Shown here: positions 17,889-21,370 of the stretch, in pieces
How positions within the stretch are numbered: position 1 is the first letter of the stretch
Layout of the letters: each line of letters opens with the position of its first letter
Virus record (IMG/VR): IMGVR_UViG_3300046001_001298
Coordinates: 1 to 23,541 of that record
DNA length: 23,541 nt
Direction: 5' to 3' (one strand)
DNA from: a virus
Program-made: the position numbers and the translations under genes
Notes under the pieces: generated by a model
Seen by the model: the letters and a program-made list of their open reading frames with translations, nothing else
The model's database searches: none
What the model was told of the DNA's origin: nothing

Positions 17889-18268
17889 TACTTCATAGTT
17901 AGTTCTTGATTTGTTATTGAAAAATATAGATTTTGGGCTTGATGAACAAATTGAATTCTATCAGATAAATAGACTGAGCCTATTGAACAATACCAAAATT
18001 TGTTATATCTACAATAAAATTCTATGCCACCAAACATTATACACCAATCTAAATTGTTTACTTTTTTACCACCCATTTTTAATAACCATTCCTCTGTTAG
18101 TGGTATTGGGTTGATTGAGTTTATCGTTGGTTCGATATAATTCTCTTTTATAGACTCCACTACAACACTTGACATAGTAATTTCTTTTACTCTACATGGA
18201 TGTAAATTATTGTTAATACAAATGTAATTGTCTAATCTTAATTCTTTAAAGTTTATATTGTTATTCAT
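17888..18268 (-). CDS. Hypothetical phage protein with C-terminal NLYF-LT-EELT-type motif (126 aa)
   Basis: The protein begins NFKELRLDNYICIN and contains INPIPLTEEWLLKMGGKK. It ends FVHQAQNLYFSITNQELTMK. This LT-WL... then HQ-QNLYF-LT arrangement recurs in unassigned proteins of Bacteroidetes phages and mobile elements. No biochemical role is known to me. A full-consensus promoter ends 5 bases before the ATG, so this gene probably heads an operon that reaches the terminase, with an mRNA that has almost no leader. Confidence 0.65.
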   Translation of the reverse strand: MNNNINFKELRLDNYICINNNLHPCRVKEITMSSVVVESIKENYIEPTINSINPIPLTEEWLLKMGGKKVNNLDWCIMFGGIEFYCRYNKFWYCSIGSVYLSDRIQFVHQAQNLYFSITNQELTMK

Positions 18269-18273
18269 AGTTG

Positions 18274-18304
18274 CAAATATAATATTTAATTTTTATTTAA
18301 CAAA
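18274..18304 (-). promoter_or_regulatory. Full-consensus promoter placed at the start codon
   Basis: On the minus strand TTTG, a 19-base spacer and TATATTTG match the Bacteroidetes consensus exactly. TATATTTG is followed by CAACT and then the ATG at 18268. The start site, usually 4-8 bases after this box, falls on or beside the ATG. The promoter overlaps the end of the glycosyltransferase gene. Confidence 0.75.
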
Positions 18305-19558: not shown

Positions 19559-19719
19559 AAGTGTTTTATCATTTTAATGTATGCAGGAATTTGAGTCATC
19601 AATATTGTTAAAAATATTTGAACATCTTCTCCTTTTATAATTTTAGTTAAACTATATGGTATTGTCCATAATGTTAAAAAAAATATTAGTATAGCTATTA
19701 TTTGATTAGTATACTTCAT
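19555..19719 (-). CDS. Small membrane protein (54 aa)
   Basis: ATG 19719 lies 14 bases inside the end of the metallophosphoesterase gene, and TGA is at 19557-19555. The product begins MKYTNQIIAILIFFLTLWTI, a clear membrane helix, followed by SLTKIIKGEDVQ and a second hydrophobic stretch (about 34-50). A two-helix membrane protein is likely. Coupling at both ends supports translation. No family is recognised. Confidence 0.6.
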   Translation of the reverse strand: MKYTNQIIAILIFFLTLWTIPYSLTKIIKGEDVQIFLTILMTQIPAYIKMIKHL

Positions 19720-20695
19720 ATGTATTTTGGTCTATTCTTTTATTCTCTACTCTATAATTACCATTCTCTTGAACTATCACTCTCGCAAATCCTAAGTTAT
19801 GTTTGCAGTTGAACGGGTCATAGTTAGGTGCTAAGGTGCATAAACAAGCTACTGAATAAGTTGTATTCAAGTCGCCTTGCAAATTACTCTCACTATGTTC
19901 AGAAGTTGTATGACAATGACCGATAAGCATTGAACCTTTAATCTTATTATACACTCCCTTAGCAGGGTTAACAGGACTAAAGAACCCCTTAATAATCATG
20001 TGACCATGTGTCACGGGTAGCTTACCTATCATTAAAACACTTGTTTGTGGTATCCAAACTATCCCTTTCTCTCTTAGCTTAAGTCTTGCACTCAAAGTAT
20101 AGTATTGGTCATTAAATAAAACGGGTGCTTTTTTCATTAAGTATCTCATGTACCAATTATCATGGTTACCCTCTACAAAGTAGATAGGACATTTAAACTC
20201 TTCAAGCAACATATCTAAAAAGTCCTCAGTCATTTGAAACCAATCCCTAACATCTGAACTATTAGGTGGTGGTGCATCGTGATTAGTAAATGGTTCGTTG
20301 TCTAATAAGTCCCCATTAATAACTATGCAATTAATCTTATTAGTCTTACCATATTCTAAAGCCTTACCTAATGCCTTAACATCGTGGTTAGGGAAATGTA
20401 TGTCACTAATTATTAAAATATTGTTACACTCTTTCGGTAAGTCTATAAAGTTTCTTTTTTCGCCTTTAGATTGTGGTAAGTTAAATTGAGTTTCAATATC
20501 AGGCTTATGGTCTACTACTTTATATTTTAATCTACTTTCACCCTGTGCGCCTGTTACCTTTCGAACTATTGAGCGTGTGTTTTCGTAGTCACTAAAATAA
20601 GTTGGATAAGTTTCTAACAAATAAGTTACTATTGCGTTCTTACTTAATTTTGGAAACTCAATCAATGCTTTAATTGCTATATCTTGTTTTTTCAT
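19706..20695 (-). CDS. Calcineurin-like metallophosphoesterase (329 aa)
   Basis: This is a two-metal phosphoesterase. Motifs are in order: SDIHFPNHD (D98, H100), NGDLLD (D129), EGNHD (N177, H178), THGHM (H230, H232) and GHCH (H260, H262). Residues 1-50 are a small helical domain (IEFPKLSKNAIVTYLLETYP) that looks like an accessory or DNA-binding module. All metal-ligand residues are present, so it should be active. The substrate is unknown; a nucleic-acid phosphodiester or a nucleotide is typical for phage members. The leader upstream is a tRNA-shaped RNA with its own promoter. Confidence 0.9.
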   Translation of the reverse strand: MKKQDIAIKALIEFPKLSKNAIVTYLLETYPTYFSDYENTRSIVRKVTGAQGESRLKYKVVDHKPDIETQFNLPQSKGEKRNFIDLPKECNNILIISDIHFPNHDVKALGKALEYGKTNKINCIVINGDLLDNEPFTNHDAPPPNSSDVRDWFQMTEDFLDMLLEEFKCPIYFVEGNHDNWYMRYLMKKAPVLFNDQYYTLSARLKLREKGIVWIPQTSVLMIGKLPVTHGHMIIKGFFSPVNPAKGVYNKIKGSMLIGHCHTTSEHSESNLQGDLNTTYSVACLCTLAPNYDPFNCKHNLGFARVIVQENGNYRVENKRIDQNTYEVY

Positions 20696-20708
20696 AATTT
20701 TAAATTAA

Positions 20709-20774
20709 ATGTCAATAAGGGACTCGAACTCTTATTCCAATCTTGTTGGGTGTTACCATTTACACTAATTGACA
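20709..20774 (-). ncRNA. tRNA-like RNA with shortened anticodon arm
   Basis: A 66-base element with three canonical tRNA parts and one altered part. The acceptor stem TGTCAAT/ATTGACA is 7 perfect pairs (20774-20768 with 20716-20710). The D arm is GTGT-AAATGGTA-ACAC with the conserved GG in the loop. The T arm is AAGAG-TTCGAGT-CCCTT with four of five pairs and the invariant TTCGA loop. Between D and T arms only 16 bases remain: a 4-bp CCAA/TTGG stem with a CAAGA loop, plus AAT, instead of about 23. No CCA is encoded. It sits at the predicted transcription start and 14 bases before the metallophosphoesterase ATG. It cannot be a standard decoding tRNA. Confidence 0.7.
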
Positions 20775-20783
20775 TCGTTAATA

Positions 20784-20813
20784 CAAAAGTACTATTTTAT
20801 TTTAAAAATCAAA
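20784..20813 (-). promoter_or_regulatory. Promoter for the tRNA-like leader and metallophosphoesterase
   Basis: On the minus strand TTTG, an 18-base spacer and TACTTTTG (fits TAnnTTTG) lie at the end of the methyltransferase gene. The start site would fall near 20777, within a few bases of the first base of the tRNA-like acceptor stem (20774). Confidence 0.55.
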
Positions 20814-21370
20814 ATAGTTTTTTTAAACCAATGTGCTTTATCCTCAATTACTGACCTTGCATCTTCGGTTTCCTTTTCCATTAATTCAAACCCCCTCTTT
20901 TCAAACTCAGGTATTATCTCATGGTTATCTAAGCAATTGACATGACCAAATCCCTCCTGACCTCTTACTGCCCATGAAGTTATTAAATACTTTTCAGCGT
21001 GTTTAGTAATGTTATCCAAATAAGTAGCCATGTGTTCTTTATGTATGTGTTCTCCCACTTCTAAACTAATTGCAGTATTGCATGGGAAATTATCTATTAA
21101 AAAACTCTTTGTCAAGTCTTGTTCTATCATATTAGTATAAACTGCTTGTTTAGGCTTATTACCCTCTACTCCTAATACATCAACCCAATTACCAAAAAAG
21201 TCTTTTATATCTTTACAATAGTTGCCTAAACCACAACCAAAGTCTATTATACTTGTTTGCCCTCTATCACCTAAAAACTTAATAATCCACTCACTTAACT
21301 TCTCTGAGTGTACATGGTGGTGGTGTGCAGTTTCGCCATTCCAATATCCTGTTTTTGATATTTCGCTCAT
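20792..21370 (-). CDS. Class I SAM methyltransferase (192 aa)
   Basis: The SAM-binding motif I is IIDFGCGLGN at residues 41-50, with a later VEG acidic loop at 68-70 and EVGEHIH at 104-110. The N-terminus has a natural HHHH (16-19) within KTGYWNGETAHHHHVHS, a pattern I associate with small methyltransferases near glycosyltransferases. The target is unknown: a sugar hydroxyl or a small molecule is the likely type. It starts by ATGA overlap with the preceding methyltransferase and is the last gene of the cassette before the promoter. Confidence 0.82.
   Translation of the reverse strand: MSEISKTGYWNGETAHHHHVHSEKLSEWIIKFLGDRGQTSIIDFGCGLGNYCKDIKDFFGNWVDVLGVEGNKPKQAVYTNMIEQDLTKSFLIDNFPCNTAISLEVGEHIHKEHMATYLDNITKHAEKYLITSWAVRGQEGFGHVNCLDNHEIIPEFEKRGFELMEKETEDARSVIEDKAHWFKKTILIFKIK

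What the first reader, a model, noticed from the sequence alone, without database searches (positions are those of the whole stretch)
20709..20813. Promoter-linked tRNA-like leader with a shortened anticodon arm
A consensus-type promoter is followed by a transcript that begins at or beside a tRNA-shaped element: perfect 7-bp acceptor stem, correct D arm with GG, and T arm with TTCGA loop. The region between D and T arms is about 7 bases too short, leaving a 4-bp stem with a 5-base loop. The anticodon arm is altered while acceptor, D and T arms stay canonical. That suggests selection for tRNA-shaped recognition (RNase P/Z processing, CCA addition or a host tRNA-binding factor) without decoding. 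It is also the 5' leader of the metallophosphoesterase gene, so it may set the mRNA end or its stability.
Basis: partly seen in the sequence, partly recalled or inferred. Interest (0 to 1): 0.72.

Follow-up and report, generated by a model that had tools for sequence, protein, structure and literature searches.

The report
Phage mRNA leader shaped like tRNA
A Bacteroidetes-type phage starts one of its messages with a small RNA that folds like a transfer RNA but has too short an anticodon arm to read a codon; its phage relatives conserve the shape, and comparable RNAs turn up in many unrelated viral sequences, so this looks like a tRNA shape kept for something other than decoding.

Summary
On the minus strand at 20774..20709 lies a 66-nt tRNA-shaped element: 7-bp acceptor stem, D arm with GG, TTCGA T loop, U8, A14, A15-U48, but a 13-nt anticodon arm instead of 17. 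Rfam's tRNA model scores it 37.6 bits (cutoff 29). A Bacteroidetes promoter lies directly upstream; the predicted start site puts the element at +6. It ends 13 nt before the metallophosphoesterase AUG. Seven related contigs carry it at the same site, all short-armed, with compensatory changes in D and T stems and indels only in loops. Two relatives lack it and have the promoter abutting the AUG. Decay of a normal tRNA and a conserved small protein are therefore unlikely.

The element is not isolated. Pattern scans plus a cloverleaf parser gave 63 clusters of short-armed tRNA-like sequences in viral contigs; two Bacteroidetes-phage-like families among them show clear acceptor-stem covariation. 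I found no description of such a class in the papers I could search.

What it does is inferred. I favour recognition by tRNA-shape enzymes (RNase P/Z) that cut it out and trim the mRNA; an uncut translation-enhancing leader is a close rival. No transcript data exist here.

The parts
20784..20813 (-). Bacteroidetes-type promoter: TTTG (20813-20810), 18-nt spacer, TACTTTTG -7 box (20791-20784)
   Evidence: exact match to TTTG-N17-21-TAnnTTTG; -7 box lies at -12 to -5 in Flavobacterium (PMC9723704); -7 box kept in relatives with and without the element
20779..20779 (-). predicted transcription start (+1), 5 nt before the element
   Evidence: inferred from the -12 to -5 position of the TAnnTTTG box; no RNA data
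20709..20774 (-). tRNA-like element, 66 nt, including discriminator position U73 at 20709
   Evidence: Rfam RF00005 37.6 bits; conserved with covariation in L001-L007
20768..20774 (-). acceptor stem 5' strand UGUCAAU (pairs with 20716-20710)
   Evidence: 7/7 pairs; invariant in all copies but one G-U
20750..20765 (-). D arm GUGU-AAAUGGUA-ACAC with G18G19
   Evidence: 4/4 pairs in all copies; one compensatory change G-C to A-U in L004
20737..20749 (-). shortened anticodon arm CCAA-CAAGA-UUGG (13 nt instead of 17 or 18)
   Evidence: short in every copy: loops of 5 or 6, or CCAAC-UUU-GUUGG in L006
20717..20733 (-). T arm AAGAG-UUCGAGU-CCCUU (one A.C mismatch in the window copy)
   Evidence: two pairs with compensatory changes across copies
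20710..20716 (-). acceptor stem 3' strand AUUGACA; no CCA encoded after it
   Evidence: sequence
20696..20708 (-). 13-nt A/U-rich spacer between the element and the start codon
   Evidence: 13-15 nt in all six distinct copies; unpaired in the predicted folds of three of four leaders
19706..20695 (-). metallophosphoesterase gene (329 aa) whose leader the element forms
   Evidence: Pfam PF00149 5e-12; phrog_221 metallo-phosphoesterase 2e-30
20692..20775 (-). upstream ORF starting at an AUG formed by A-1, U1, G2 (27 codons), overlapping the gene's AUG; not frame-conserved
   Evidence: reading frame broken by loop indels in L004 and L006

Best explanation
A tRNA-derived, non-decoding leader RNA that is read by its tRNA shape. 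Shown by sequence and comparison: the promoter of the metallophosphoesterase gene is followed by a tRNA-shaped element with intact acceptor, D and T arms and elbow residues but a truncated anticodon arm, and this arrangement is conserved under selection on RNA structure. Inferred: the host's tRNA-processing enzymes, RNase P at the 5' side (5-nt leader) and RNase Z or exonucleases at the 3' side, recognise the elbow and the acceptor/T-arm stack, which do not need an anticodon arm. They would cut the element out, leaving a metallophosphoesterase mRNA with a short unstructured leader of 13-15 nt and releasing a ~66-nt tRNA-like RNA that cannot decode. In relatives without the element the same promoter is predicted to give a leaderless mRNA.
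For: Rfam tRNA scores 37.6, 41.6 and 44.0 bits for three diverged copies. Seven contigs plus the window share the site, all short-armed. Covariation: 95.8% of cells paired, 3 pairs with double changes, structure far above its slid versions. The element is more conserved (mean 87% identity) than the promoter (78%) or spacer (76%). Tertiary core kept: U8, A14, A15-U48, G18G19, UUCGA loop. Elsewhere, 63 clusters of short-armed tRNA-like sequences in viral contigs keep U8 in 63/63 and U48 in 49/63, neither required by the searches, and 32/63 have an arm hairpin of at least 4 bp against 17 (max 28) in shuffles. Two sister families show acceptor-stem covariation. A predicted TSS 5 nt before the element resembles tRNA gene layout. 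mascRNA, with a compact loop in place of the anticodon loop, is a known case of RNase P/RNase Z processing by elbow mimicry (PMC11693755).
Against: No transcript, end-mapping or processing data. A-1:U73 pairs in all copies and -2:74 pairs in all (G-U, G-C, A-U), which lengthens the stem past the normal cut sites. U73 and no encoded CCA. The T stem has an A.C mismatch in three of six distinct copies, and two copies lose the outer arm pair. The acceptor stem barely varies. Across the wider set, placement just before a gene is not clearly commoner than for ordinary phage tRNAs (20/56 against 49/196 within 60 nt), so a leader role is specific to this and a few families.
Confidence: 0.4

Rival explanations
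1. The element stays in the mRNA as an uncut cis leader that raises or regulates translation and protects the 5' end, for instance by binding the ribosome through its tRNA-like elbow.
For: Constant 13-15 nt distance to the start codon; extended stem -1:73 and -2:74 kept paired; no CCA, U73; relatives without it are predicted leaderless. Precedent: the yjdF riboswitch, and authentic tRNAs grafted into leaders that raise translation 2- to 6.3-fold, with the elbow GG needed in yjdF (PMC9142559).
Against: A well-formed tRNA fold with a 5-nt leader would be expected to be an RNase P substrate in the cell; the precedent was measured in vitro with a Shine-Dalgarno sequence, which Bacteroidetes mRNAs usually lack.
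Confidence: 0.28
2. The product is a trans-acting tRNA mimic, for example a decoy for a host tRNA-binding factor or for a tRNA-targeting defence nuclease; the downstream gene only shares its promoter.
For: Comparable elements occur in many phages in unrelated gene contexts. tRNAs are known targets of phage defence and phage tRNAs are known counters (PMC11555353, PMC12409363, PMC12851939, abstracts).
Against: Several tRNA-cleaving defences act at the anticodon loop, which is missing here; no target identified; the window copy is tied to one gene at constant spacing.
Confidence: 0.14
3. A tRNA gene in decay: a deletion removed part of the anticodon arm and the rest is drifting.
For: T-stem mismatch in three copies and loss of an outer arm pair in two.
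Against: No full-armed relative at this site; later substitutions are compensatory; indels fall only in loops; element more conserved than its flanks; no other tRNA found in the phage.
Confidence: 0.1
4. The conserved feature is a small upstream ORF (AUG at about +5) controlling the downstream gene by translational coupling.
For: AUG conserved in all copies; in the window the ORF's stop overlaps the downstream AUG.
Against: Frame broken by +1 and -1 indels in L004 and L006; ORFs of 20-27 codons with different ends; stem covariation is not explained.
Confidence: 0.04
5. An autoregulatory operator: the phage metallophosphoesterase binds its own tRNA-like leader.
For: Physical linkage only.
Against: Sister short-armed families precede other genes; two close relatives have the gene without the element.
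Confidence: 0.04

Closest known systems
mascRNA / menRNA (tRNA-like RNAs of MALAT1 and MEN beta, PMC11693755)
   Same: acceptor and T arms, D-loop GG making an elbow, compact loop in place of the anticodon loop, part of a longer transcript, not usable for decoding
   Different: human, cut from long noncoding RNAs, reduced D arm; here a phage mRNA leader with a full D arm; processing not shown here
yjdF riboswitch and cis-tRNA leaders (PMC9142559)
   Same: tRNA-homologous element in an mRNA leader upstream of a start codon, elbow GG conserved
   Different: yjdF has an adenine-rich ligand-binding J1/2 and an anticodon-equivalent stem of normal length and controls a Shine-Dalgarno site; here J1/2 is UA and the arm is truncated
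Ordinary phage-encoded tRNA genes
   Same: cloverleaf, tertiary core, promoter a few nt upstream
   Different: no 7-nt anticodon loop, 66 instead of ~73 nt, no encoded CCA, U73, no other tRNA found in the phage
tRNA gene fragments left by phage integration (PMC9897764)
   Same: tRNA-like sequence that annotation tools handle badly
   Different: both ends of the tRNA are intact here and the change is internal; conserved upstream of a phage gene

Membership tests
canonical tRNA | 7-bp acceptor stem, D arm with GG, T arm with TTCRA loop, U8 | tested here: met
   one T-stem mismatch in the window copy
canonical tRNA | anticodon arm of 5 bp with a 7-nt loop and U33 | tested here: not met
   13- to 14-nt arm, loop of 3-6 nt in all copies
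canonical tRNA | 3' CCA end (encoded or added) | tested here: inconclusive
   not encoded; addition cannot be tested
mascRNA-like processed tRNA mimic | elbow residues G18/G19 with T loop UUCGA | tested here: met
   invariant in all copies
mascRNA-like processed tRNA mimic | cleavage by RNase P and RNase Z, CCA addition | not testable with these tools
   needs RNA
yjdF riboswitch | adenine-rich J1/2 ligand pocket and match to the family model | tested here: not met
   J1/2 is UA; no Rfam family other than tRNA reached its threshold in the region
tRNA-type mRNA leader (cis-tRNA) | tRNA fold between transcription start and start codon of the same mRNA | tested here: inconclusive
   sequence layout fits; transcript not shown
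tRNA gene fragment at a phage attachment site | only one end of a tRNA, at an integration junction | tested here: not met
   both ends of the tRNA present, element lies between two phage genes; host unknown

The most novel reading that the evidence does not exclude
Phages encode a broad, undescribed class of non-decoding tRNA mimics in which the anticodon arm is replaced by a short hairpin while the tRNA elbow is kept, used as shape-recognised RNA modules (processing signals, translation leaders or decoys); the window element is one family of them.
Probability: 0.4. Interest if true: 0.82.

Novelty: new variant of a known kind. Interest (0 to 1): 0.62.

Why it matters
tRNA shape is used outside decoding in plant viruses, human noncoding RNAs and one riboswitch. 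A conserved tRNA shape without a usable anticodon arm at the head of a phage mRNA, with comparable elements in dozens of other viral sequences, would give a bacterial system in which to ask what the tRNA elbow alone recruits. ARAGORN finds none in the window, so such RNAs may be overlooked in phage annotation. It also bears on how phages of bacteria without Shine-Dalgarno leaders shape their mRNA 5' ends.

Tried and rejected
Small-protein reading: frames not conserved. Simple decay: no full-armed relative, compensatory changes, loop-only indels. Leader placement as a rule for the wider set: short-armed elements are not clearly more often just upstream of genes than normal phage tRNAs, so I do not claim it. 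-1:73 pairing as a class feature: 29/63 against 22.9 expected, not convincing. GNRA/UNCG tetraloops as a class rule: only 6 of 62 by a strict test. Amino-acid identity from the acceptor: 1-72 and 3-70 pairs vary across the set, no single identity. Cultured relatives: no DNA match to the window element worth keeping, none to two sister families in the phage collection; metallophosphoesterase relatives there only at 30-37% identity. Relatives of the gene in prokaryote genome contigs: none. In genome contigs only a sister-type pattern was scanned, one hit in a MAG contig. Isolate contigs with other truncated elements had no near match among annotated phages.

Full report
OBSERVATION. The element lies on the minus strand, 20774..20709: UGUCAAU UA GUGU-AAAUGGUA-ACAC CCAA-CAAGA-UUGG AAU AAGAG-UUCGAGU-CCCUU AUUGACA U. 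Rfam's tRNA model matches its full length with 37.6 bits (gathering 29) when 501 bases are searched. In a search of the whole window at gathering threshold it is lost to the fast filters, and ARAGORN does not report it. A cloverleaf of this quality appears in about 1% of dinucleotide shuffles of the 23.5-kb window, so the window alone does not settle it; the comparison below does.

SURROUNDINGS. The window is part of a tailed phage: large terminase (Pfam Terminase_3C), gp3-like packaging protein, glycosyltransferases, methyltransferases and a metallophosphoesterase, nearly all on the minus strand. The element lies between a methyltransferase gene (21370..20792) and the metallophosphoesterase gene (20695..19706). 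Just upstream is TTTG-N18-TACTTTTG, an exact Bacteroidetes promoter. In Flavobacterium the TAnnTTTG box occupies -12 to -5 (PMC9723704), which puts +1 at 20779 and the first acceptor base at +6. The window contig, and a 53.6-kb contig of a relative, hold no other tRNA at the search's threshold.

RELATIVES. A search with the metallophosphoesterase in viral contigs gave 80 loci. L001 to L007 carry the element at the same site. L009 and L010 lack it and have the promoter's TTTG 4 nt before the AUG, a predicted leaderless start. Loci with 65% or lower protein identity lack it. A tree of the protein does not resolve whether L009/L010 lost it or branched before its gain. Two different patterns, one on the acceptor and T arm and one on the arm and T arm, return the same seven contigs. 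Across six distinct copies, 95.8% of base-pair cells pair, with double compensatory changes in one D-stem and two T-stem pairs; sliding the partners by 1-3 columns drops pairing to 32-47%. The acceptor stem is almost invariant. Indels fall only in the D loop (L006) and the arm loop (L004). The arm is short in every copy: 5- or 6-nt loops, or CCAAC-UUU-GUUGG in L006. Two further pairs, A-1:U73 and -2:74 (G-U, G-C or A-U), extend the acceptor stem in all copies. The element is more conserved than its flanks (87% against 78% and 76%). The distance from U73 to the start codon is 13-15 nt.

NOT A PROTEIN. An AUG formed by A-1, U1, G2 opens a 20-27 codon ORF in all copies, but L004 and L006 change frame and the ends differ.

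A WIDER SET. Position 8 is U in 63/63 and position 48 is U in 49/63; neither was required. An arm hairpin of 4 bp or more is present in 32/63, against a shuffled mean of 17 and maximum of 28. Encoded CCA is rare (4/63, against 22/74 in ordinary tRNAs of the same loci). Two Bacteroidetes-phage-like families have clear covariation, including three consecutive acceptor pairs changed together; they lie 19-28 nt before a gene start. L090 repeats the window's layout of promoter then element. A sister-type pattern found one hit in 84,980 prokaryote genomes, while the viral scans returned more than twenty contigs with elements of that type. Some of the 63 may be decayed tRNAs; the families with covariation are unlikely to be.

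MECHANISM. Shown: a conserved, non-decoding tRNA shape between a promoter and a start codon. Inferred: who reads it. Enzymes that measure from the tRNA elbow, RNase P and RNase Z, do not need the anticodon arm, and mascRNA shows that an RNA with a compact loop there is processed by them (PMC11693755). That would release a tRNA-like RNA and give the mRNA a short open leader. The close rival is an uncut leader that helps translation, as tRNAs grafted into leaders do in vitro (PMC9142559); the paired -1:73 and -2:74 positions and U73 lean this way. I put 0.40 and 0.28 on these.

NOVELTY. Five searches of the paper library for tRNA-like RNAs of phages with reduced anticodon arms found no description. 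The library holds open-licence papers only, so absence there is weak evidence. The window element is a new variant of known tRNA mimics; whether the wider set is one class is open.

Noticed in passing
L330, L332, L338, L339, L346, L347, L350-L353, L360, L363-L365, L368-L371, L373, L377: A separate family in viral contigs: TTTGTA, 5-17 nt, then a tRNA-Gly(UCC)-like gene with U73, loop CATCCAG in many (A33 instead of U33) and a conserved extra A in the T stem, often followed by a terminator-like hairpin with a T run; looks like a stand-alone, possibly non-decoding Gly-tRNA-like RNA.
   Followed up: no
L133, L134, L136, L139: A Gln-type tRNA whose anticodon stem halves (AACAG ... CTGTT) appear separated by an insert that holds a second T-arm-like sequence; looks like an interrupted or recombined tRNA.
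   Followed up: no
L232 (180-kb viral contig): At least four different truncated tRNA-like sequences in one contig, with D-to-T regions of 6-13 nt.
   Followed up: no
L242 at 373 (also L313, L316): A 59-nt tRNA-like sequence without an anticodon arm, 47 nt upstream of an ORF whose start reads like a TnpB/IS605 OrfB protein (the protein resemblance is from memory).
   Followed up: no
L095, L099 and relatives: A conserved stretch with an imperfect inverted repeat (GGCTTTGCAATTTAGAAAGCAAATGCAAGGC) directly upstream of the tRNA-like element, with no obvious promoter.
   Followed up: no
window 18274..18304 (-): A second exact Bacteroidetes promoter 5 nt before the ATG of the ORF at 18268, predicting a nearly leaderless mRNA.
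   Followed up: no
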